Origin: Candidatus Binatia bacterium
GTDB lineage: Bacteria > Desulfobacterota > Binatia > UBA1149 > CAITLU01
Reading direction: 5' to 3'
DNA length: 64,000 nt
NCBI GenBank assembly: GCA_036493895.1
Contig: DASXOZ010000013.1
Location: forward strand, 62,001 to 126,000
In this document: positions 27,372 to 40,874 of the stretch, piece by piece
How the letters are laid out: every line of letters begins with the position of its first letter
How positions within the stretch are numbered: the first letter of the stretch is position 1
Translations under genes and position numbers: made by a program
The notes under the pieces: generated by a model
What the model was told of the DNA's origin: nothing
Seen by the model: only the letters and a program-made list of their open reading frames with translations
Database searches by the model: none

Positions 27372-27623
27372 GTCGCCCGATAGCGCGGGAGCGCCATGCT
27401 TCGCAAGCCGGCGGCGGCTCGGAAGCGGGCGCAACCTGGCGACCGGCGGCTGTCTGGCGACCCGATCGCGAGCGGACGGGAACTTTTCGCCGGATACCGA
27501 TCGGCGTGCTGCCGATGCTGCGCTGCGTCCCGATCGTCCCGGCGGGTGCACACGCAGGCATGCCCGCGCTCCCACCGCAGCCGGGGCGCGGGTATAGTGA
27601 AAGATCGGAGCAGTTCCGCACCG

Positions 27624-29156
27624 ATGCAGGATAACAGCCCACGTTCTTTCGCCGAGCGCCCGGTCGTCGCCCCCGCGACGACCCAGGATGCGCTGCAGGC
27701 CGCGCCGCACCTGGCCACCGCGCCGCCAGCCGGCAGCGACCGGCGCGTCGTCGACGCGATTCGCGAGATCGTGGGCCCGCGCGGCATCGTCGACGGCGCG
27801 AGCGCTCGCAAAGTCTACGAGTGCGACGGCTATACGCTCGAGAAATCGGTGCCCCGCCTCGTCGTGCTGCCCGCGACCACTGAAGAGACCTCGCGCGTCG
27901 TGTCCGTCCTGGCCGGCGCGGGCATTCCGTTTGTTCCGCGCGGCGCCGGCACCGGCGTCTCGGGCGGCTGCCTTCCGCTCCAGTCCGCCGTGATGATCGG
28001 CACCTCACGCCTGCGCCGCATCCGCAGCATCGACGTCGAGGCACGCACCGCCGAAGTGGAAGCGGGAGTCGTGAACCTCGAGGTTTCGCGCGCGGTCGAT
28101 GCGCACGGGCTCTACTATGCGCCCGATCCTTCGAGCCAGTCGGCATGCAGCATCGGCGGCAACGTCGCCGAGAATTCGGGCGGGCCGCACACGCTGAAGT
28201 ACGGTGTCACCGTCAATCACGTCCTCGCGCTGGAAGTCGTGCTGCCCGACGGCCGCGTCATCTGGCTCGACCGCGAGTACGACGCGCCCGGTTACGATCT
28301 CGTCGGCATTTTCACCGGCAGCGAAGGCACGCTCGGCCTGGTCACGGCGGCGCGCGTCCGCCTGATGCGCAAGCCCGAGTCGGTGACGACGCTTCTCGCA
28401 GTATTTCCCGGCGTCGCGCAGGCGAGCCGCGCCGTTTCGGCAATCATCGCGGCGGGCATCATCCCGGCCGCTCTCGAGATGATGGACGCGCTCGTCATCG
28501 AGGCCGTCGAAGCTGCCTACCACTTCGGCTTTCCCGCGGGCGCCGGTGCGGTGCTCCTGATCGAGCTCGACGGCATCGCAGCCGGCCTCGATGCGCTCGC
28601 CGCCCGCGTCCACGACTGCTGTACCCGCGAAGGGGCAAGCGAAGTGAAGCGTGCGGCGGGCGAAGAAGAGCGCGCACTGCTGTGGAAATCGCGCAAGCGC
28701 GCGTTCGGCGCGATGGGACGGCTCGCGCCGGCCTATTGCACCCAGGACGGTGTCGTCCCGCGCAGCCGCCTGCCCGAGATCGTGGCGAAGATCGCCGAAG
28801 TCGCGTCACGCTACCACCTTCGCATCGCGAACCTGATGCATGCCGGAGACGGCAACATCCATCCCCTCGTGCTCTACGACGAAGACGTTCCCGGCGAAGT
28901 CGAGCGCGTGCTCGCTGCCGGAAACGAAATCCTCACCGCGTGCATCGAGCTCGGCGGCTCGATCACCGGCGAGCACGGCATCGGCATCGAAAAAATGGCG
29001 CTGATGCCGAAGTCGTTCACCGCACCGACCCTCGCGGCGATGGAGGACATCCGGACGGCCTTCAACCCGCGAGGCCTGTGCAATCCGGGCAAGATCCTGC
29101 CGTCCTCGCGCACCTGCGTCGAAGTTCGTCGCCCACGTCCCCGGGGCGGCGGATGA
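27624..29156 (+). CDS. glcD: Glycolate oxidase FAD-linked subunit
   Basis: 510 aa from ATG 27624; a GTG at 27597 would add nine residues. FAD-binding PCMH domain: RLVVLPATTEETSRVV, FVPRGAGTGVSGG, ACSIGGNVAENSGGPHTLKYG, GYDLVGIFTGSEGTLGLVT. The C-terminal FAD-oxidase domain has NLMHAGDGNIHPLVLYD and GSITGEHGIGIEK, the GlcD hallmark, ending FNPRGLCNPGKILP. It oxidises glycolate (or D-lactate) to the 2-oxo acid, in complex with GlcE and GlcF. The glcE ATG overlaps its stop (ATGA). Confidence 0.92.
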   Translation: MQDNSPRSFAERPVVAPATTQDALQAAPHLATAPPAGSDRRVVDAIREIVGPRGIVDGASARKVYECDGYTLEKSVPRLVVLPATTEETSRVVSVLAGAGIPFVPRGAGTGVSGGCLPLQSAVMIGTSRLRRIRSIDVEARTAEVEAGVVNLEVSRAVDAHGLYYAPDPSSQSACSIGGNVAENSGGPHTLKYGVTVNHVLALEVVLPDGRVIWLDREYDAPGYDLVGIFTGSEGTLGLVTAARVRLMRKPESVTTLLAVFPGVAQASRAVSAIIAAGIIPAALEMMDALVIEAVEAAYHFGFPAGAGAVLLIELDGIAAGLDALAARVHDCCTREGASEVKRAAGEEERALLWKSRKRAFGAMGRLAPAYCTQDGVVPRSRLPEIVAKIAEVASRYHLRIANLMHAGDGNIHPLVLYDEDVPGEVERVLAAGNEILTACIELGGSITGEHGIGIEKMALMPKSFTAPTLAAMEDIRTAFNPRGLCNPGKILPSSRTCVEVRRPRPRGGG

Positions 29157-30457
29157 GCGCGGCGTCCGCAGTTGCAAGACCTCGCCTGGATCCGGCGTCG
29201 TTCCCGTCGATGGGGCCGGGCCAGCTCCGGCCGGGCCGCGACAATGACGCCATCGACGGGCTGGTTCCGCAGGCGGTGATCACGGCGCGCGAGACGGCGC
29301 ACGTCGTCGCGACGATCGAGGAGGCCCGTGCGAAAAAGCTTGCCGTGGTGCCGAGCGGCGGCGGCACGCTGCTGCACGTCGGCGCCGTCCCGCGCGCCTA
29401 CGACATTCGCCTCTCGATGACCGCGATCGGCAACATCGTCGAGGAGAACCCCGAGGACATGACGGTGACCTGCCAGGCGGGAGTCTCGCTGTCGAGGTTG
29501 CAACGCAGCCTGGCCAAGCAGGGCCAGCGTCTTGCGATCGACGCGGCCCGCGAAGACCGCGCCTCGATCGGCGGCATCGTCGCCGCCAACGCGACCGGCG
29601 GGCTGCGCCACGGTTTCGGCCTGCCGCGCGACCTCGTGCTCGGCGCGACGGCGATCGACGGTTGCGGGCGCGAGATCGTCGCCGGCGGCCGTGTCGTCAA
29701 GAACGTCGCCGGATACGACCTCGTGCGGCTTTTCGCCGGGTCCTGGGGCGGCCTTGCGATCCTGACCGAGCTGACGCTGCGCACGCATCCTCTTCCCGCC
29801 GCGGCAGCGACGCTGGTGTTCGAATTCGTCTCGGCGAGCGAGCTGGACGCGGCGCGCTCCCGCCTGGCAGGTGCCCAGCTCTCGCTGTCGGCGATCGATT
29901 TTACAGTGGACACCACGGAAGCGATGCCGCTGTGGATCCTCGTCGTCCGGATCGAGGGAACAGAAGAAGAAGTGGGCTGGCAGGGCGACGCCGTCTGCGC
30001 GCTGGTCGGACGCCAGCCGGCCGATGCCGCCGAAGAATGGGAAAGCCCCGCGCATGTGGATGACGGCCACGGGACGAGCGTGCGCGTGGCCGCGGCGCCG
30101 CAGGACATCGTCGGCGTCGTGCGCGACGTCTGCGCGAAGTGGAAACAGAGCGCAGCGTCCCAGGGAGGGCAGGCTGCGATCCGCATCGCGGGGCATCTCG
30201 GCGCGGGCATCGCGAGATTCCATCTCGCCGGAGCAGAAGCAGGCGAAGCAGACACGGCCAGCGCAGCGCTCATCACGGCCACCGCCGTCGGCGGCCTGGT
30301 CCGCGGGCGTGTCATCGAGAGAGCGCCCGCGCAGCTCAAGGCTCTCTACGATGTGTGGGGACCGCCGCCCGCGTCGATCGGCCTGATGCGCGCCATCAAG
30401 CGCCGTTTCGATCCCGACGACGTGTTGTCGCCTGGCCGCTACGTCGGAGGACTTTGA
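29153..30457 (+). CDS. glcE: Glycolate oxidase FAD-binding subunit
   Basis: 434 aa. A second, shorter FAD-binding PCMH protein: VVPSGGGTLLHVGAV, MTVTCQAGVSLSRLQ, IGGIVAANATGGLRHGFGL, GRVVKNVAGYDLVRLFAGSWG, all GlcE-like. The C-terminal half is divergent and ends FDPDDVLSPGRYVGG. GlcE does not have the EHGIG motif of GlcD. Start overlaps glcD by 4 nt; the last base of its stop is the first base of the glcF ATG. Confidence 0.9.
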   Translation: MSAASAVARPRLDPASFPSMGPGQLRPGRDNDAIDGLVPQAVITARETAHVVATIEEARAKKLAVVPSGGGTLLHVGAVPRAYDIRLSMTAIGNIVEENPEDMTVTCQAGVSLSRLQRSLAKQGQRLAIDAAREDRASIGGIVAANATGGLRHGFGLPRDLVLGATAIDGCGREIVAGGRVVKNVAGYDLVRLFAGSWGGLAILTELTLRTHPLPAAAATLVFEFVSASELDAARSRLAGAQLSLSAIDFTVDTTEAMPLWILVVRIEGTEEEVGWQGDAVCALVGRQPADAAEEWESPAHVDDGHGTSVRVAAAPQDIVGVVRDVCAKWKQSAASQGGQAAIRIAGHLGAGIARFHLAGAEAGEADTASAALITATAVGGLVRGRVIERAPAQLKALYDVWGPPPASIGLMRAIKRRFDPDDVLSPGRYVGGL

Positions 30458-31707
30458 TGGGCGGCCCGGGTCTTCCGTGCGTGCACTGCGGCCTGTGCCT
30501 CGACACTTGCCCGACGTATCGCGTCCTCGGCACCGAAGCCGATTCCCCGCGCGGACGAATCTACATCATGGAGGGCATCCGCGACGGAGAGCTCGAATTC
30601 GACGACGAGGCGGCGCTGCACCTGTCGCGCTGCCTCGGCTGCCTCGCGTGCGAGAGCGCGTGTCCGTCGGGCGTCTCCTTCGGCCGCCGCATCGAGGAGT
30701 TCCGTCCTCGCCTGGCCGAGCGCACGGGCAGCACGCGCCGCTGGCAGGACCTCGCGCGCAAGGCCTACACCAGCGACGCCCTCGTCGACGCCGGTGTCAA
30801 GGTAGCTTCCCTTCTCGACCGCGCAGGGCTCGGCGGCGTAAGAAGGAAGGTGCCGGGACTCGGGCTCCTGCCTGGCTCGCTGCCGGGCTCCCAGCCGTCC
30901 TCGAGCGCCGGCGTTTCTCCGCTTCGCCGCAGCACCAGCCACCAGCCGCTGCGCGCCCGCGCGCGGGTGGCCGTGCTGACCGGCTGCGTCGCCGACCGCG
31001 TGCTTCCCGACATCAACCGCGACACCGTCGAGGTGCTGCAGCGCAACGGAATCGAGGTGGTGGAGGTCGCCGGGCAGCAGTGCTGCGGCGCGCTCGCGCT
31101 GCACGCCGGGCTCACGAGCGATGCGGTCGAGTTGGCTGCCGCGAACGCCAACGCGCTGGCGGGGTCCGACATCGACTTCGTCGTCACGACGGCAGCGGGC
31201 TGCAGCGCGATGCTTCGCGACTACGCTCATGTGCTGGCCGGAACCAGCGCCGCCGGCCGCGGCGAGGAGCTGGCATCGATGAGCCGCGACATCTGCGAGC
31301 TTCTCGTCGAGATCGGATTCGACGCGCCCGCCCGGCCGCTGGAAGCGCGCGGCAACGTCGCTTTCCACGACGCCTGCCACCTGCTGCACGCGCAGGGAAT
31401 CTCGTCGGCGCCCAGACGCGTGTGCGAGGTCGCGCTCGGGCGTGCGCCGGTCGATCTCGGGGAGAACGCGATCTGCTGCGGAAGCGCCGGCAGCTACAAC
31501 ATCGACCATCCGGTGCTGTCGGCCGAGATCGGCGCACGCAAGGCGGAGCTTGCCCGCGAGCGCAAGGCGACTGTGGTCGCTGTCGCCAACGTCGGGTGCA
31601 TGCTTCAGATCGGACAGGCCGTTGCGCTGGCCGGGCTGCCGACCCTCGTCAAGCATCCGGTTCAGCTGCTGGCCGAGGCATACCGGCGAAGCGACACGGG
31701 TGCCTGA
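30457..31707 (+). CDS. glcF: Glycolate oxidase iron-sulfur subunit
   Basis: 416 aa. Two 4Fe-4S ferredoxin motifs: CVHCGLCLDTCP (Cys8, 11, 14, 18) and CLGCLACESACP (Cys59, 62, 65, 69). Two CCG domains follow, with QQCCGALALHAG near 208 and FHDACHLLHAQG plus ICCGSAGSYNIDHP later. GlcF passes electrons from the flavin subunits toward quinone at the membrane. A Ser/Pro-rich linker at about 140-165 is longer than usual. Last gene of glcDEF; a MAPEG gene follows 72 nt later with its own ribosome-binding site. Confidence 0.92.
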   Translation: MGGPGLPCVHCGLCLDTCPTYRVLGTEADSPRGRIYIMEGIRDGELEFDDEAALHLSRCLGCLACESACPSGVSFGRRIEEFRPRLAERTGSTRRWQDLARKAYTSDALVDAGVKVASLLDRAGLGGVRRKVPGLGLLPGSLPGSQPSSSAGVSPLRRSTSHQPLRARARVAVLTGCVADRVLPDINRDTVEVLQRNGIEVVEVAGQQCCGALALHAGLTSDAVELAAANANALAGSDIDFVVTTAAGCSAMLRDYAHVLAGTSAAGRGEELASMSRDICELLVEIGFDAPARPLEARGNVAFHDACHLLHAQGISSAPRRVCEVALGRAPVDLGENAICCGSAGSYNIDHPVLSAEIGARKAELARERKATVVAVANVGCMLQIGQAVALAGLPTLVKHPVQLLAEAYRRSDTGA

Positions 31708-32251: not shown

Positions 32252-32752
32252 TCAGCGAGGCTTGTAGTCGCGGTCCATCACGGTCTTTCGACCTTCGGTC
32301 CGGGCCTGGTCGATCGCGCGGTCGGTGTGCTCGCGAACGATGTCGGACAATTCGTCGAGCACCGATTCCGACATGTTCATGCCCGCGCGAGCGCGGATGT
32401 AAGTCTTCAGTTTGGAGGCGACGACGAGCACGTCGTCGGGAATCGCCGGCGCGGACGGCGGCGGCTGGGTCCTGGCGTCGACCACGATGCGGCGCGGCGC
32501 TCCTTCCGCGGAAGCCCTTTGCTCCGACTCCCACTCCCCGCGAGCCGGCGCGCGTTTCTGTTCGGCCCACGCGTCGCGGTGGCGCATCACCGGTACGTGC
32601 TCCTCCCAGCAGGTTACCGAGCAGAACACCGGATGATTTCGTCCGGTCGTGCACGTCGAGACGCTGCACTGGTAGTACTCGGACTCGAAGCCGAGGTCCC
32701 GCTTGCAGACTCCGCATCGTTTCCAGGAGACAGAAGACTTCACGTCGGTCAT
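32252..32752 (-). CDS. Zinc-finger protein with C-terminal histone fold (prokaryotic histone-like)
   Basis: 166 aa. Residues 13-52 form a two-site zinc finger: Cys13, Cys16, Cys29, Cys34, His40, Cys44, Cys48 and His52 (CGVC, CSVSTC, HPVFCSVTCWEEH). A disordered, charged linker covers about 55-105. The C-terminus (106-166) reads like a histone fold: helix 1 DVLVVASKLKTYIRARAG, helix 2 ESVLDELSDIVREHTDRAI continuing to QARTEG, then RKTVMDRDY, the counterpart of archaeal histone RKTI/V-x3-D. The chain stops just after the start of helix 3, so that helix is short or absent. Histone-fold proteins bind DNA or form dimers. It is the third gene after a membrane protein and a TonB-like gene, with a 13-nt gap. 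Confidence 0.7.
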   Translation of the reverse strand: MTDVKSSVSWKRCGVCKRDLGFESEYYQCSVSTCTTGRNHPVFCSVTCWEEHVPVMRHRDAWAEQKRAPARGEWESEQRASAEGAPRRIVVDARTQPPPSAPAIPDDVLVVASKLKTYIRARAGMNMSESVLDELSDIVREHTDRAIDQARTEGRKTVMDRDYKPR

Positions 32753-32765
32753 GGCACAAATTCTC

Positions 32766-33557
32766 TCAGTGCAGCCCATAGTCGACGGGCGCGTCGAATT
32801 CGAAACTCGCATCGGGGTATTCGGGGGGGATCGCAGGAAAAGGGCTCGCTCGCCGCACCAAGTCGAGAGCCGCCTGGTCGAGCAGATCCTGGCCGGTGCT
32901 GCGCACAATGGAGGCTTCGAGCACGCGCCCGCTGCGGTCGATGCGGATTCTGACGGACGCATGGCCCTGGAGGCCGCGACGCTTCGCGAGCACCGGGTAT
33001 TCTTCCTTGTGGCGGTGCAGCCATGCGGACAGCAGCTCCAGGTAGCGCACGCCCGCCGATTCTCCCCAAGACGGCGCGCTCGCAACGGCACCGCTCCCCG
33101 AATCGCCGCCGGTCGCGCGACCGTCTGCGGTTGCCGCGGCGCTTGCGGGAGCAACCGATGCGATTGCCGGCGCAGGCTGCGGAGCGGGGGGTTTTGCGGT
33201 TTTGTTTTTTTTCGGCGCCGCGACCAGCGGAGGAGCCGGCGCAGGGGTCTCGTTGCCGGTCTCCACTTTTGCTGCCGGCTCGATGACGGCCGGCGCCGGC
33301 GAGTCCTTTGGCGGCGCAGGCGGCTGCGCAGCCGCCGGAGCCGACGCTGCCGCAGACTGAAGGCGATCGGACGGGATGCCGGGACCGGCGGTCCTGGTTC
33401 CCGCAGGCACAAGGCTGAGCAGCAGCGGCGCCCTCGGCATCGCAAGCTCGACGACGACCTGGTGCCGAAGCAGCAAAGCCAGGACCATCGCGTGCAGGAC
33501 GATCGACAGGGCGACCGATACCGACTGCCGCGACGCAAGCACCGTCACGACCACCAC
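32766..33557 (-). CDS. TonB-like energy-transducing protein
   Basis: 263 aa from GTG 33557 (GTGs at 33554 and 33548 are also possible). One N-terminal membrane helix (VSVALSIVLHAMVLALLL), then a long Pro/Ala/Lys-rich periplasmic spacer (about 50-165), then a TonB C-terminal domain: YPVLAKRRGLQGHASVRIRI, DRSGRVLEASIVRSTGQDLLDQAA and SPFPAIPPEYPDASFEF. TonB couples the proton gradient to outer-membrane receptors. No exbB/exbD or receptor gene lies beside it. It sits between a small multi-helix membrane protein and the histone-fold gene, all leftward with short gaps. Confidence 0.82.
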   Translation of the reverse strand: MVVVTVLASRQSVSVALSIVLHAMVLALLLRHQVVVELAMPRAPLLLSLVPAGTRTAGPGIPSDRLQSAAASAPAAAQPPAPPKDSPAPAVIEPAAKVETGNETPAPAPPLVAAPKKNKTAKPPAPQPAPAIASVAPASAAATADGRATGGDSGSGAVASAPSWGESAGVRYLELLSAWLHRHKEEYPVLAKRRGLQGHASVRIRIDRSGRVLEASIVRSTGQDLLDQAALDLVRRASPFPAIPPEYPDASFEFDAPVDYGLH

Positions 33558-35439: not shown

Positions 35440-36066
35440 TCAGCGGTCGAGGCTCGCGACGATCGTCTCGACGTCCTCGAGCCGCTGGGCGGAGTGGGGC
35501 GTGCGACCGCACATCGGTCCCATGCCGATGAAGCGGATGTTGGCGGCCGCGGCGGCCGCGAGGTCGGTCGCCTGGTCGCCGACGTACACTGCCTCCGCAG
35601 CAGAAACACCGAGACGCGCCAGGCAAAGCTCGAGCATGTCCGGCGCGGGCTTGGGATTGGCGACGTCGAGCACGCCGACGGCGAGATCGAACAACGGTTC
35701 CAGCGCGAAGTGGCGAAGGACGCCCTGCGTGGTCTTGCCTCGGTTGGTCGCCATTGCCGTTCGGTAGCGCTTCCTGAGCGACTCGAGCGTTTCACGCAGC
35801 CTCGGCTTCGGCTGCATCAGCGGGAAGAACGGAGCGTAGTCGGTCTGGCGCGAAACGGCCTGCACTCGGGCGAGCAGCTGCGGCTGGTCGCCGAACATTT
35901 TCTCGAACAGCTGCGCGGACGCGAGCGAATGATAGGCCGCCTCGGCCGATTCGGGCACCGGCGGCGCGCCCGACGCGCGCAGCACCTCGCGGTAGAACGC
36001 GAGGTTGGCGGGCTCGGAGTCGAACAGCACTCCGTCGCAGTCGAAAATGAGCAGTTGGATTGCCAT
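35440..36066 (-). CDS. HAD-superfamily phosphatase (Gph/beta-phosphoglucomutase-like)
   Basis: 208 aa with AAGG upstream of ATG 36066. HAD motifs: FDCDGVLFDSE (nucleophile Asp, residues 8-17), AMATNRGK (motif II Thr), KPAPD (motif III Lys) and VGDQATDL (motif IV). The inserted helical cap follows motif I, as in phosphoglycolate or small sugar phosphatases. It is 76 nt downstream of glpK on the same strand, so it could be the last gene of the glycerol cluster. Substrate unknown; phosphoglycolate or glycerol phosphate would fit the wider context but neither is proven. Confidence 0.82.
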   Translation of the reverse strand: MAIQLLIFDCDGVLFDSEPANLAFYREVLRASGAPPVPESAEAAYHSLASAQLFEKMFGDQPQLLARVQAVSRQTDYAPFFPLMQPKPRLRETLESLRKRYRTAMATNRGKTTQGVLRHFALEPLFDLAVGVLDVANPKPAPDMLELCLARLGVSAAEAVYVGDQATDLAAAAAANIRFIGMGPMCGRTPHSAQRLEDVETIVASLDR

Positions 36067-36142
36067 TCGGCCTTTTCCGCCGGGTTTGGCTGCAGCGCGG
36101 GCCGCGTTCGCGTTGCGCACCGCCTCTCGCCTGAAAAGCGCT

Positions 36143-37591
36143 TCAGCCCGCCTCGGTCACTACCAGATCGAGGCGCTTCTTCCAGAGCGCGCGCCGCGCG
36201 GCCCGTTCGTCGGAAGAAATCGACGGCTCGAAGACACGATCGGCAACGAAGGCCGACGCTGCTTCCCTCGGCCACACGCCGGTGCCGACGCCCGCCAGGC
36301 GCGCCGCTCCTAGCGCAGCCCCGTCGGTGACCGCCGATCTCTCGACCGGGATCCCGAGAAGATCGGCCTGGGCCTGCATCAGGAAGTCATTGCGGCTCGC
36401 GCCACCGTCGGCCCTCAGCGAAGAGGGCGCCGCGACGCCTTCGGCGATACTCTCGGCAACGTCCGCGACACGGTGGGCGATGCCCTCGAGAACGGCGCGC
36501 ACGATGTGCGCGCGCGTCGAGCCTCGCGACAGGCCGCCGATCATCGCTTTTGCCTGTTCCAGCATCACCGGAGTTCCCAGTCCCTGGAAAGCCGGGACGG
36601 CCCAGACGCCGCCGCTGTCTTCGACGCTTGCCGCTAGCCGCGCCGTCTCGGCGGCGTCTGCGACCACCCCGAGACCGTCCCGCAGCCACTGGACCGCCGC
36701 GCCGGCCGTCACGACCTGACCTTCGAGGCTGAGCACGGTGCGACCGTCGTAGCGCCACGCGACGATCGGGTAGGTGCCCGCGCCGCCGAACGCCACGGAT
36801 TCGCCGGAATTCATCGTGATCATCGCCGAGGTGCCGTACGAGCACTTGGCCTGGGAAAGTTCGACGCAGCCGAGGCCGAACAACGACGCCTGCTGGTCTC
36901 CGGCCATCCCCGCAAGCGAAACTTCGGCGCCGAAGCCGGCAACCGTGGTCCTTGCCAGCTCCCCGCTGGAGTCGACGAGCTTCGGCAGAATCGCCGGGTC
37001 GAGGCCCAGGGCTGCGAGGGGACCCGGATCCCAGTCGTTCTGGAAATAGGAGTACAGGCCGGTCGTGCTCGCGTTACCATGGTCGCTGATGTGAACGTCT
37101 CCACACAGGCAGGCGGCGAGGAAAGCGTTCGGGGTACCGAGTCGAAGACGGCCCGAGGCCGCAGCTTCGCGCGCCGCGGGCACGTTTTGCAGGATCCACT
37201 CGGCCTTGGACGCCGCCATCATCGGCGTGATGTAAAGGCCCTGGTCCTGCAGCTCGCGGCAGCGGTCGGCGCCGCGCGTATCCTGCCAGATGAGCATCGG
37301 CGACAGCGGCCTCCCGGCCGGTCCGTCCCATGCGACGATCGACGATCGCTGGTTGGTGATGCCGACCGCCGCAACGTCGCGCGCCGTCGCTTTGGCCGCG
37401 GCGATGGCGGCGTCGATCACTTCGCGCATCGACGTTCGGATCGCGTCGGGATCCTGCTCCATCCATTGCGGTCGCGGATAGTGGCTCGCGATCTCGCGGT
37501 ACGCCGAAGCCGCGACGTTTCCTTCTTCGTCGAGCAGCAGCGCGCGCACGCCCGTCGTGCCGGCATCGATTCCCATGACCAGTCGCGCCAT
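36143..37591 (-). CDS. glpK: Glycerol kinase (FGGY family)
   Basis: 482 aa from the second of two adjacent ATGs (37591; GGAG 6 nt upstream). Marks: GIDAGTTGVRALLLDEEGN, WMEQDPDAI, VGITNQRSSIVAWD, WQDTRGADRCREL, LFGLGC, CSYGTSAMI, and ADGGASRNDFLMQAQADLLG. It phosphorylates glycerol to glycerol 3-phosphate. It lies between the alkyl-DHAP-synthase-like gene (28 nt upstream) and the HAD gene, in an order glpD - flavoprotein - glpK. The substrate is inferred from family marks and neighbours; other FGGY sugar kinases share part of the pattern. Confidence 0.85.
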   Translation of the reverse strand: MARLVMGIDAGTTGVRALLLDEEGNVAASAYREIASHYPRPQWMEQDPDAIRTSMREVIDAAIAAAKATARDVAAVGITNQRSSIVAWDGPAGRPLSPMLIWQDTRGADRCRELQDQGLYITPMMAASKAEWILQNVPAAREAAASGRLRLGTPNAFLAACLCGDVHISDHGNASTTGLYSYFQNDWDPGPLAALGLDPAILPKLVDSSGELARTTVAGFGAEVSLAGMAGDQQASLFGLGCVELSQAKCSYGTSAMITMNSGESVAFGGAGTYPIVAWRYDGRTVLSLEGQVVTAGAAVQWLRDGLGVVADAAETARLAASVEDSGGVWAVPAFQGLGTPVMLEQAKAMIGGLSRGSTRAHIVRAVLEGIAHRVADVAESIAEGVAAPSSLRADGGASRNDFLMQAQADLLGIPVERSAVTDGAALGAARLAGVGTGVWPREAASAFVADRVFEPSISSDERAARRALWKKRLDLVVTEAG

Positions 37592-37619
37592 CATCAGCTC
37601 CGTCGCCACCGCGTCGCGT

Positions 37620-39029
37620 TCAGACGTCGATGAGGACGCCGGGATTGAGGATTCCCGCGGGGTCGAATGCACGCTTGAGCGCGGCCAGCAGTGCTACTCC
37701 CTCTCCGAGCTCCTTGCGCAGCCACTGCTTGCGCACGCGGCCGATGCCGTGGTGGTGCGAGATGGTCCCGCCGAGCTCGATCGTCGTCTCGATGGTCGTG
37801 CGCCACGCCTCGTCGTAGATCGTGACGGCAGCTGCAGGGTCGCTCTCGGCGGCGACGAACGTGAAGTAGATGTTCGCGCCCTGCGTGTAGCAGTGCGACA
37901 CGTGCCCCGACATGGCAAAGACACCGTTGATCTTCGCGCCGCGCGAATTGACGGTCTCGAACAGCTCCCCGATGCGATCCCAGCCGATGGCGACCTCGAT
38001 GGTGTCGGCCACCAGCCCCTGGGCCAGCAGCTTTTCGAACGACGGCACGTGGTTTCGATGATCGAGCCAGCTGCGCAGCGGTGCCTCGCCGAGATCGGCG
38101 CCGCCGCAGGACGCGACGATTGCCGCGGCCGCCTCCGCTTCGGGCCGCACGCGCGCGGCCGTCCCTTCGCTCATCACCAGCAGCACCGGCTTCCCCGCGG
38201 CATCGACGGCGAAATTGCGTCCCGCTTCGGTCGCGTCGTAGAGGCGCGTCACGGCCGGGGTCCAGCCCGCTCGAAGGATGAGGCGCAAGGCATCGAGCCC
38301 GTCGGCGATCGAGTCCATGCGGAAGGCGCGGCCTACCTGCAGCTCCGGCGCCGGGTGGATGCGGAAGGTCAGCTCCGTGAACACGCCGAGCGTGCCTTCG
38401 CTGCCGAGGAACAGGTGCCTCAGGTCGGGGCCCGCGGCGGCGCGGGGCACCGGCGCGAGCTTCATGCGGCTTCCGCCCGCGAGCACGATTTCGCAGCCGA
38501 GCAGCATCTGCTCGATGTTGCCGTACAGCGTCGACAGCTGTCCCGAAGCGCGCGTCGCGCACCAGCCTCCGACGGTCGAAATTCCGATCGACTGGGGCCA
38601 GTGGCCCATCGTATAGCCGCGCGCGGCAAGGGCCGCCTCGAAATCGCTGCCGCGCATTCCCGGCTCGACGCGTACCGTCAGCGACTCGTCGTTGATCTCG
38701 AGAAGGCGATCCATGCGGCCGAGGTCGAGGATGATCTCGCGGCCCGACGCGAGCACCGCGCCGCAAACGCCCGAGCCGAGCCCGAACGGGACGACCGGCG
38801 TTTTCGTCTCATCGGCAAACGCGAGCACGGCGGCGACCTGGCCTGCGTCGGCCGGGCGGGCGACCAACGCCGCGCGAGGGGCCCCGTCGATGCGTGACGC
38901 AAGCAGCGATCGCATCCAGCTGTCGCGGCTCTTCGCTTCGACGGCCGAGGCGTCGGTAAGGATTTCGAGCCCGGGAACGCTGCGGGCAAGGGCTTGGGCA
39001 AGGTCGGATGCGGAAATGGGCGAGCTCAT
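37620..39029 (-). CDS. FAD-binding oxidase, alkyldihydroxyacetonephosphate synthase (AGPS)-like
   Basis: 469 aa. The PCMH domain has FGLGSGVCGAVLASG, VRVEPGMRGSDFEAAL, YTMGHWPQSIGISTVGG, ATRASGQLSTLYGNIEQML and LFLGSEGTLGVFTELTF. The C-terminal domain has the catalytic HHHGIGR loop (GGTISHHHGIGRVRKQWL), which is the AGPS signature; GlcD-type oxidases have EHGIG there. AGPS exchanges an acyl chain of acyl-DHAP for a fatty alcohol, forming the ether bond of ether lipids. It lies between glpD and glpK, which handle glycerol phosphate and DHAP. Not a proof of ether lipid synthesis; related proteins oxidise other substrates. Confidence 0.82.
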   Translation of the reverse strand: MSSPISASDLAQALARSVPGLEILTDASAVEAKSRDSWMRSLLASRIDGAPRAALVARPADAGQVAAVLAFADETKTPVVPFGLGSGVCGAVLASGREIILDLGRMDRLLEINDESLTVRVEPGMRGSDFEAALAARGYTMGHWPQSIGISTVGGWCATRASGQLSTLYGNIEQMLLGCEIVLAGGSRMKLAPVPRAAAGPDLRHLFLGSEGTLGVFTELTFRIHPAPELQVGRAFRMDSIADGLDALRLILRAGWTPAVTRLYDATEAGRNFAVDAAGKPVLLVMSEGTAARVRPEAEAAAAIVASCGGADLGEAPLRSWLDHRNHVPSFEKLLAQGLVADTIEVAIGWDRIGELFETVNSRGAKINGVFAMSGHVSHCYTQGANIYFTFVAAESDPAAAVTIYDEAWRTTIETTIELGGTISHHHGIGRVRKQWLRKELGEGVALLAALKRAFDPAGILNPGVLIDV

Positions 39030-39098
39030 CGCGTGTGTCTCCTCTTCGGTCGAAGCAGCGTCGCCGCGCGTGGCCGGTCCGTCCGCGCTGCCGTGGTC

Positions 39099-40745
39099 TC
39101 AGGCCGAACGCACCAGCTCGAGCTCGGCGCGCCACTGCCGGGTCGTCGCGTCGATCTCTGACGCGGCACGCGCCTGGTCCCAGCCCAGCAAGCCGCCGAG
39201 AACTCCGGCCGCATCCGGAGCCGCGACAATCGCTGCCGCGGTATCGAACATGGCGACGCGGCAACGGCGCCTCAGCAGGTCGTCGAGCGACGCTACCATT
39301 TCGTGGGAAACGGCATGTTCGACCTCGGCGTGCGTCAGCTCCTCGAGGCCGCCTACCGGCTGCGCCAGAGCCGGTTCGTCGCGGATTCGTCCGATGATCG
39401 CTGCGGCGGCTACGCCGTACGTGGACCACAGCCGGGTTTCCAGTGCCTTGCCAGCCGCGTCGGCGGCGATCGAAGGAGCGGTGCCGCGTGCCTGCTGCTG
39501 CTCGTGCTCATCGCCACCGGCCAGGGCGACTGTTGCGGAGTCGACGCCTGCGGGCGCGCTCTGGCCGAGAATGCGGAACACCTCCGCGCAGACGCGCTCG
39601 GCCATGCGCCGGTACGTCGTCAGCTTGCCGCCGGCGATCGCGACGACGGGGCCGGGGCCGGTGAGGATTTCGTCGCGCCGCGAGATCTCGGACGGCGCCT
39701 TTCCTTCCTGCGCGAGAAGCGGACGCACGCCGGACCAGGTTCCGACGATGTCCGCGGCGCGCGGTGCGTCGGCGAACGTCGCCGCCACCGAATCGAGGAG
39801 GTAGCGGGCATCGGCGACCGATACTCCCGGCTCCTCGGGCGCGCCTTCGTAGTGCGTATCGGTGGTGCCGATGTAGACCGCGCGTCCGCGCGGCACGACG
39901 AACGTCGAACGACCGTCGGGCGAGCGCAGTACGACGCTGTGGCGCACGGGCAGCTTCGCGCGCGGGACCACGAGGTGGATGCCGCGCGTGAGCTGCAGTC
40001 GCGCTCCGCCGGCGCCGGCACCCGGCGTCATCGACTGTACGCGCTCGAACCAGGGACCCGCGGCGTTGACCAGGCAGCGCGCACGCACGACGAGGGATTC
40101 GCCGGTCACGCGGTCGCGCACGCAGACGCGCAGGCCTGCCGGATCGGCGGCAACCTCGACGACTTCGGCGTAGGACGCGACGACGGCGCCGAGGGCGAAG
40201 GCGCCCTGGACGGTCTCGAGCACGAGGCGGGCATCGTCGGTCAGGTATTCCTGGAAAACGACGGCCCCCGCCAGCGGAGACGGCCTCAGGCCGGGTTCCT
40301 TTTCGAGGGCCCCGCGCCGGTCCAGCACCTGGTAAGGGTCGCCTGCCTGTTCCCCCGCAAGTTTCTCGAAGGTCCACACGCCGGCCTGCATCTTCATGCG
40401 CCCGGCCAGCGACGCGGTCGGCATCATCATCCACAAAGGCTCGGCCAGGTGCGGAGCCAGGCGTCTCAGCACGGCTCTTTCGCGTGCCGCCTCGCGCACC
40501 AGGGCCACGTCCCCCTGGGCAAGGTAGCGAAGGCCGCCATGGATCAGCTTCGAGGAGCGGCTGCTGGTTCCGGACGCGAAGTCGCCTTTGTCCAGCAGCA
40601 CGGTCGCAAGGCCGCGAAGGGAAGTCTCCCGGGCCACCCCGGAGCCGGTGATGCCGCCGCCGATCACGACCACGTCGGCGACGGACGAGGCGGCGCGCTC
40701 GAGGCCCCGCCGCCTGGCGCCGAGATCGAAAGGAGTGCCGGGCAC
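39099..40745 (-). CDS. glpD: FAD-dependent glycerol-3-phosphate dehydrogenase
   Basis: 548 aa from GTG 40745. The FAD-binding GGGITGSGVARETSLRG, LDKGDFASGTSSRSSKLIHGGLRYL (split in reading), and C-terminal AGGKLTTYRRMAERVC are canonical. It oxidises glycerol 3-phosphate to DHAP and feeds electrons to quinone at the inner membrane. The C-terminal DAO domain (about 385-540) with THAEVEHAVSHEMVASLDDLLRRR is intact. First gene of the glpD - AGPS-like - glpK cluster; the AGPS-like start is 69 nt downstream. A MerR-type regulator gene is divergent. Confidence 0.92.
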   Translation of the reverse strand: MPGTPFDLGARRRGLERAASSVADVVVIGGGITGSGVARETSLRGLATVLLDKGDFASGTSSRSSKLIHGGLRYLAQGDVALVREAARERAVLRRLAPHLAEPLWMMMPTASLAGRMKMQAGVWTFEKLAGEQAGDPYQVLDRRGALEKEPGLRPSPLAGAVVFQEYLTDDARLVLETVQGAFALGAVVASYAEVVEVAADPAGLRVCVRDRVTGESLVVRARCLVNAAGPWFERVQSMTPGAGAGGARLQLTRGIHLVVPRAKLPVRHSVVLRSPDGRSTFVVPRGRAVYIGTTDTHYEGAPEEPGVSVADARYLLDSVAATFADAPRAADIVGTWSGVRPLLAQEGKAPSEISRRDEILTGPGPVVAIAGGKLTTYRRMAERVCAEVFRILGQSAPAGVDSATVALAGGDEHEQQQARGTAPSIAADAAGKALETRLWSTYGVAAAAIIGRIRDEPALAQPVGGLEELTHAEVEHAVSHEMVASLDDLLRRRCRVAMFDTAAAIVAAPDAAGVLGGLLGWDQARAASEIDATTRQWRAELELVRSA

Positions 40746-40874
40746 CCGCGCCGCCTACGTCCGCGGCGACCTGGAGTCAACAAAGGTGTCCCGTGGCACT
40801 CGCCGCCGGCCGCTCGCGACCCGCCACGATGCCTTGGCGACGCATCCGGGGGCTATGACGCCACGCATCATCTT

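What the first reader, a model, noticed from the sequence alone, without database searches (positions are those of the whole stretch)
32252..32752. Zinc-finger protein with a C-terminal histone fold
Residues 13-52 carry eight Cys/His zinc ligands and residues 106-166 read as a histone-fold dimer unit with the RKTVMDRDY motif (compare archaeal histone RKTIKAEDI). The third helix is cut short. I recall zinc-finger histones being described among prokaryotic histone families, but from memory only. The gene sits with a TonB-like and a membrane protein, an unexpected partnership for a DNA-binding protein.
Basis: partly seen in the sequence, partly recalled or inferred. Interest (0 to 1): 0.82.

Follow-up and report, generated by a model that had tools for sequence, protein, structure and literature searches.

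The report
Bacterial ZZ (zinc-finger) histone, Binatota member

Summary
Window 32252-32752 (-) encodes a 166-residue protein with eight zinc ligands (C13, C16, C29, C34, C44, C48, H52, H58), a disordered linker, and a C-terminal histone fold (about 107-163) with a truncated third helix and RKTVMDRD. The histone part matches the Bdellovibrio histone HBb by sequence (E 3e-7 single, 9e-16 profile) and predicted fold (Foldseek prob 1.00); eight of HBb's ten main DNA contacts and its RD clamp are kept. The finger is structurally closest, weakly, to eukaryotic ZZ domains. This is the defined architecture of the 'ZZ histones' of Schwab et al. 2024 (PMC11390915). All eight ligands hold in 79 of 80 homologous loci; dN/dS is 0.21-0.30. 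Extra points: the host is probably Binatota/Binatia; in that class every histone domain found (30 of 148 genomes) goes with this finger, whereas some relatives keep the finger alone; the linker carries a recurrent RR[IV][IV] motif; the membrane protein-TonB-histone order is conserved only within part of the host's family. Conclusion: a new member of a known kind, probably a DNA-bending dimer with a finger tether whose partner is unknown.

The parts
32252..32752 (-). ZZ histone gene, 166 aa
   Evidence: ORF and translation; homologues in all 7 sampled genomes of its family including its own
32546..32725 (-). N-terminal ZZ-type zinc finger (residues 10-69): C13 C16 C44 C48 and C29 C34 H52 H58 by the published site assignment
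   Evidence: eight invariant ligands; Foldseek of the finger model: best matches are ZZ domains of p62 and HERC2, weak
32483..32494 (-). RRIV motif (residues 87-90) in the otherwise variable, low-confidence linker
   Evidence: R[RKM][IVLM][IVLTAK] in 42 of 84 linkers against mean 1.7, max 5 after shuffling residues
32264..32434 (-). C-terminal alpha3-type (truncated) histone fold, residues 107-163
   Evidence: PDB sequence hits to HBb; AlphaFold2 pLDDT about 82-94 per block of ten here and Foldseek prob 1.00 to HBb
32267..32290 (-). RKTVMDRD loop-2 / helix-3 motif (residues 155-162) with the R155-D162 'RD clamp' pair and DNA contacts K156, T157, R161
   Evidence: R155, T157, R161 and D162 invariant in A1; mapped with constant offset 104 on HBb R51, K52, T53, R57, D58
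32766..33548 (-). TonB-family protein gene directly upstream; 13 bp between its stop and the histone ATG (start codon uncertain)
   Evidence: Pfam TonB_C 1.4e-15; coordinates; neighbour order kept in L121-L124
33581..34201 (-). membrane protein without a Pfam match, upstream of TonB
   Evidence: no Pfam family; order kept in L121-L124

Best explanation
A ZZ histone: a two-module nucleoid protein. The C-terminal alpha3-type histone fold dimerises and binds the DNA backbone at the minor groove through its L1-L2 surface, bending DNA without sequence specificity as HBb does. The N-terminal two-zinc finger hangs on a flexible linker of about 35-40 residues and tethers a second partner (a protein, or a further nucleic-acid contact) to the histone-bound DNA. 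Shown here: gene, domain anatomy, ligand conservation, histone fold by sequence and model, conservation of HBb's DNA-contact residues, purifying selection. Inferred: dimerisation, DNA bending, zinc loading, and the tethering role of the finger.
For: HBb matches by sequence and fold. Of HBb's ten main DNA contacts (N22, R57, S9, T53, T8, S24, K10, K12, K52, K16; PMC11317129), eight are identical here (N126, R161, S113, T157, S128, K114, K116, K156), one is conservative (R120) and one differs (A112); R155 and D162 of the RD clamp are invariant in A1. All eight ligands hold in 79 of 80 loci. The finger model is closest to ZZ domains. The architecture equals the published ZZ histones. In this class the histone domain was never found without the finger (30 of 30 genomes), so the two modules appear to act together.
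Against: No ZZ histone has been shown to bind DNA in the papers found. The finger's match to ZZ domains is weak (E 0.19, prob 0.69, TM-target 0.55), and by sequence Pfam does not report ZZ; weak hits are zf-FLZ, C1_2 and FCS types. Dimer formation was not modelled. The two papers on HBb disagree about bending: Hocher et al. 2023 see straight DNA coated by dimers, Hu et al. 2024 see bending.
Confidence: 0.78

Rival explanations
1. The histone fold serves only as a dimerisation or anchoring scaffold, as in TAF-like histone-fold proteins, and the finger is the working part, so that the protein is a regulator or adaptor and not a nucleoid protein.
For: Finger-only relatives exist (L022, L025, L027, L034) while finger-less ones were not found in the class. 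The B. bacteriovorus ZZ histone is weakly expressed and Bd3044 cannot readily replace HBb. Operon-like position behind TonB in part of the family.
Against: DNA-contact residues of the histone part are almost all kept, and the histone domain is more conserved (66% mean column identity) than the finger (46%), which a bare scaffold would not need.
Confidence: 0.15
2. The finger reads the tail of another histone, as eukaryotic ZZ domains (HERC2, p300, ZZZ3) read histone H3.
For: ZZ domains are the best structural neighbours of the finger; the eukaryotic ones bind the H3 tail.
Against: No second histone was found in this genome (PF00808) and every histone-bearing genome of the class has only one full-length histone domain of this kind, the ZZ histone itself. 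Schwab et al. report that the pocket residues are not conserved.
Confidence: 0.03
3. The gene works with the neighbouring TonB and membrane protein as one envelope-linked unit, for example anchoring the nucleoid to the envelope.
For: 13 bp spacing to TonB and conserved MP-TonB-histone order in four genomes of the family.
Against: The order is absent from other sampled genomes of the order and class, including one of the same family (L125-L127), and no common neighbour emerges among 80 wider loci.
Confidence: 0.04

Closest known systems
ZZ histones (alpha3 histone family; Schwab et al. 2024, PMC11390915; e.g. D0LYE7 of Haliangium ochraceum; Bd3044 of B. bacteriovorus appears to be one)
   Same: N-terminal zinc domain with a C4 and a C2H2 site at the same ligand spacing, flexible linker, C-terminal bacterial-dimer-like histone fold with truncated helix 3.
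   Different: Host class Binatia (Binatota) is not named in the main text of that paper. The fourth Cys of the C4 site is C44-x3-C48 here and in the homologues, whereas the paper prints C51/C53 (x1), probably a slip or a peculiarity of D0LYE7.
Bacterial dimer histone HBb / Bd0055 (PDB 8CMP, 8FVX, 9EZZ)
   Same: Histone domain about 40% identical, same length, RKTVMxRD, RD clamp, 8 of 10 main DNA contacts.
   Different: HBb has no zinc finger or linker; it is abundant and probably essential, while the B. bacteriovorus ZZ histone is scarce.
FtF histones HLp (9QT0) and HTkC (9F2C)
   Same: alpha3-type histone fold (Foldseek prob 1.00).
   Different: No zinc finger; they form tetramers and match less well in sequence.
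Eukaryotic ZZ domains (p62/SQSTM1, HERC2)
   Same: Best structural neighbours of the finger model and a two-zinc ligand set.
   Different: Weak structural scores, no sequence hit to the Pfam ZZ family; peptide-pocket residues reported not conserved.

Membership tests
ZZ histones (Schwab et al. 2024) | N-terminal zinc domain with C4 and C2H2 sites (eight ligands) | tested here: met
   Same spacing as the paper's ligands except the second Cys of the C44/C48 pair; all eight ligands in 79 of 80 loci
ZZ histones (Schwab et al. 2024) | The zinc domain resembles eukaryotic ZZ domains in structure | tested here: inconclusive
   ZZ domains of p62 and HERC2 are the top fold matches but with E 0.19-0.67, prob 0.47-0.69; no Pfam ZZ sequence hit
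ZZ histones (Schwab et al. 2024) | C-terminal alpha3 histone fold with helix 3 of 3-4 residues and shortened helix 2 | tested here: met
   DSSP: helices 112-123 and 129-152 and a one-turn helix at about 160-162; Foldseek best match HBb
ZZ histones (Schwab et al. 2024) | RKTxxxD-type motif of bacterial dimers | tested here: met
   R155-K-T-V-M-D-R-D162; R155, T157, R161 and D162 invariant in A1
Bacterial dimer histones (HBb) | Stand-alone histone fold without extra domains | tested here: not met
   106 residues of finger plus linker precede the fold
Bacterial dimer histones (HBb) | Homodimer that binds DNA | not testable with these tools
   single-chain folding only; no bench work
Archaeal nucleosomal histones | Full-length helix 3 of about ten residues | tested here: not met
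   protein ends at 166, helix 3 about one turn; HMfB only E 0.19 by profile

The most novel reading that the evidence does not exclude
In Binatia the ZZ histone is the only histone and a genome-wide architectural protein whose finger, kept even where the histone domain is lost, docks a still unknown conserved partner; the RR[IV][IV] linker motif is a second docking site.
Probability: 0.2. Interest if true: 0.6.

Novelty: new member of a known kind. Interest (0 to 1): 0.33.

Why it matters
ZZ histones are one of the least studied bacterial histone groups, with no biochemistry in the papers found here. This member and its relatives give a clean ligand set, evidence that the finger is kept where the histone is lost, a class of bacteria in which the ZZ histone is the only detectable histone, and a linker motif to test. 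It does not change the known classification.

Tried and rejected
Viral or plasmid origin: no relative in viral contigs, plasmids or phage records. Functional partnership by neighbourhood: no shared neighbour in 80 loci; conserved only inside the family. Internal translation start giving a free histone: an in-frame ATG with a Shine-Dalgarno-like run precedes the histone domain in 8 of 38 linker Met codons against 4 of 204 elsewhere, but synonymous shuffling gives a mean of 5.8 of 38, so the signal follows from the residues and is not established; the window gene has only a GTG at residue 90 and no such run at normal spacing. Histone hidden downstream of the finger-only genes by a frameshift: not found. 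A second histone in the genome: only a sub-threshold PF00808 hit (E 0.64). Filing the finger as MYND, FLZ or FCS type: some weak sequence hits, but ZZ ranks higher by fold. A sequence profile of the finger found no PDB chain.

Full report
What is there. Homologues are found in all 7 sampled genomes of the family including its own, in 35 of 148 of the class by single-sequence search and 9 of 395 of a phylum sample. dN/dS against two relatives is 0.21 and 0.30, so it is a protein under purifying selection.

The finger. The ligands C13, C16, C29, C34, C44, C48, H52 and H58 have the spacing 2-12-4-9-3-3-5. The same spacing occurs in 73 of 80 loci from the genome collection; six others shorten the C34-C44 loop but keep all eight; one has C44 to Asp. 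In 43 aligned fingers the invariant columns are the eight ligands plus V31, S32, F43 and P69. A model of residues 1-85 (pLDDT 84) matches ZZ domains of p62 and HERC2 first and MYND domains next, all weakly. By sequence no ZZ family of Pfam is reported; weak hits are zf-FLZ, C1_2 and FCS types. So 'ZZ-type' rests on structure more than on sequence.

The histone part. phmmer finds HBb of Bdellovibrio at 3.2e-7 over residues 107-163; a profile of 26 homologues finds HBb at 9e-16, HLp at 9e-11 and HTkC at 2e-7. The AlphaFold2 model (pLDDT 84) has helices 112-123 and 129-152 and a single-turn third helix, and its best PDB matches are HBb, HLp and HTkC. Mapping onto HBb has a constant offset of 104. 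Of the ten main DNA contacts listed for HBb (PMC11317129), eight are identical, K16 is R120, and T8 is A112. The RD clamp R51-D58 is R155-D162.

What it is. This is the published definition of a ZZ histone: an N-terminal ZZ-type finger with a C4 and a C2H2 site and a C-terminal bacterial-dimer-like alpha3 histone fold (PMC11390915). The paper states these are found mainly in Proteobacteria, that half of the proteomes with one carry no other histone, and that the B. bacteriovorus example is weakly expressed. Only two held papers use the term 'ZZ histone', and none joins Binatota and histone. Loci identical in sequence to those of same-family, same-order and same-class genomes carry the titles Candidatus Binatota, UBP10 and Candidatus Binatia (L059, L055, L079), so the host is a Binatota/Binatia bacterium by inference.

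Distribution. In 148 genomes of the class, 30 have a histone domain of this kind, one full-length copy each, and every one of these genomes also has the finger. Four further genomes of one family show the finger without a detected histone; in three of them the gene is a short finger-only ORF with no histone fragment downstream (L022, L025, L027), and one genome of another class has the same state (L034). On a finger tree the three sit with a histone-bearing relative (L009) in one supported group (97/91), which suggests loss of the histone part; short sequences make the detail uncertain. The host genome has three HU/IHF-family genes and no other histone found by PF00808.

Linker. Residues 87-90 (RRIV) belong to a motif R[RKM][IVLM][IVLTAK] present in 42 of 84 linkers, against 1.7 expected after shuffling. 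It occurs in Binatota, Myxococcota and Bdellovibrionota and is absent from several Binatia families. Related sequences inflate the count.

Neighbourhood. The TonB-family gene ends 13 bp before the histone ATG, and the order membrane protein-TonB-histone is kept in four genomes of the family (L121-L124), but not in L125-L127, nor do 80 wider loci share a neighbour. The arrangement is local.

Mechanism. Most likely the protein dimerises through the histone fold and binds and bends DNA as HBb does, with the finger as a tethered second binding module. DNA binding is inferred from conserved residues; dimerisation, zinc loading and the finger's partner are untested. Reading of histone tails by the finger is unlikely because no second histone is found. 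A regulator or adaptor role, with the histone fold mainly as a scaffold, remains the main rival.

Noticed in passing
L022:1486-1764 (+), L025:1471-1758 (-), L027:1471-1758 (-), L034:1510-1722 (-): Stand-alone finger proteins of 71-96 residues without the histone domain; the finger is kept where the histone part is absent, in two classes.
   Followed up: partly
window 32483-32494 and linkers of L041-L120: Recurrent RR[IV][IV] motif in the disordered linker of ZZ histones, far above shuffled expectation; not found discussed in the main text of the ZZ histone paper (supplement not read).
   Followed up: partly
L020, L033, L044, L082, L100, L118 (linker just before the histone domain): In-frame ATG preceded by AAGGAG/AGGAGG at 6-10 bases, followed by an HBb-like start (e.g. 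MSDDAKEVLVV); possible internal initiation or fusion scar, but not above a synonymous-codon shuffle.
   Followed up: partly
L106 near 6001 (+); L114:1754-2236 (+): L106 has Asp in place of the ligand C44; L114 has an in-frame stop inside the central histone helix (decay or sequencing error).
   Followed up: no
PMC11390915 Fig. 4 legend: The paper lists C51 and C53 (profile C41, C43) in the C4 site; the homologues here have C-x3-C at that place, so the second number is probably a slip or special to D0LYE7.
   Followed up: partly
window 27396-31707 (+): Cluster of FAD-linked oxidase genes and an Fe-S/CCG-domain protein that looks like a glycolate oxidase (GlcDEF-like) set.
   Followed up: no
window 35443-40754 (-): HAD phosphatase, FGGY carbohydrate kinase, FAD-linked oxidase and glycerol-3-phosphate dehydrogenase-like genes upstream of the membrane protein-TonB-histone block, largely collinear in L121-L123.
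   Followed up: partly
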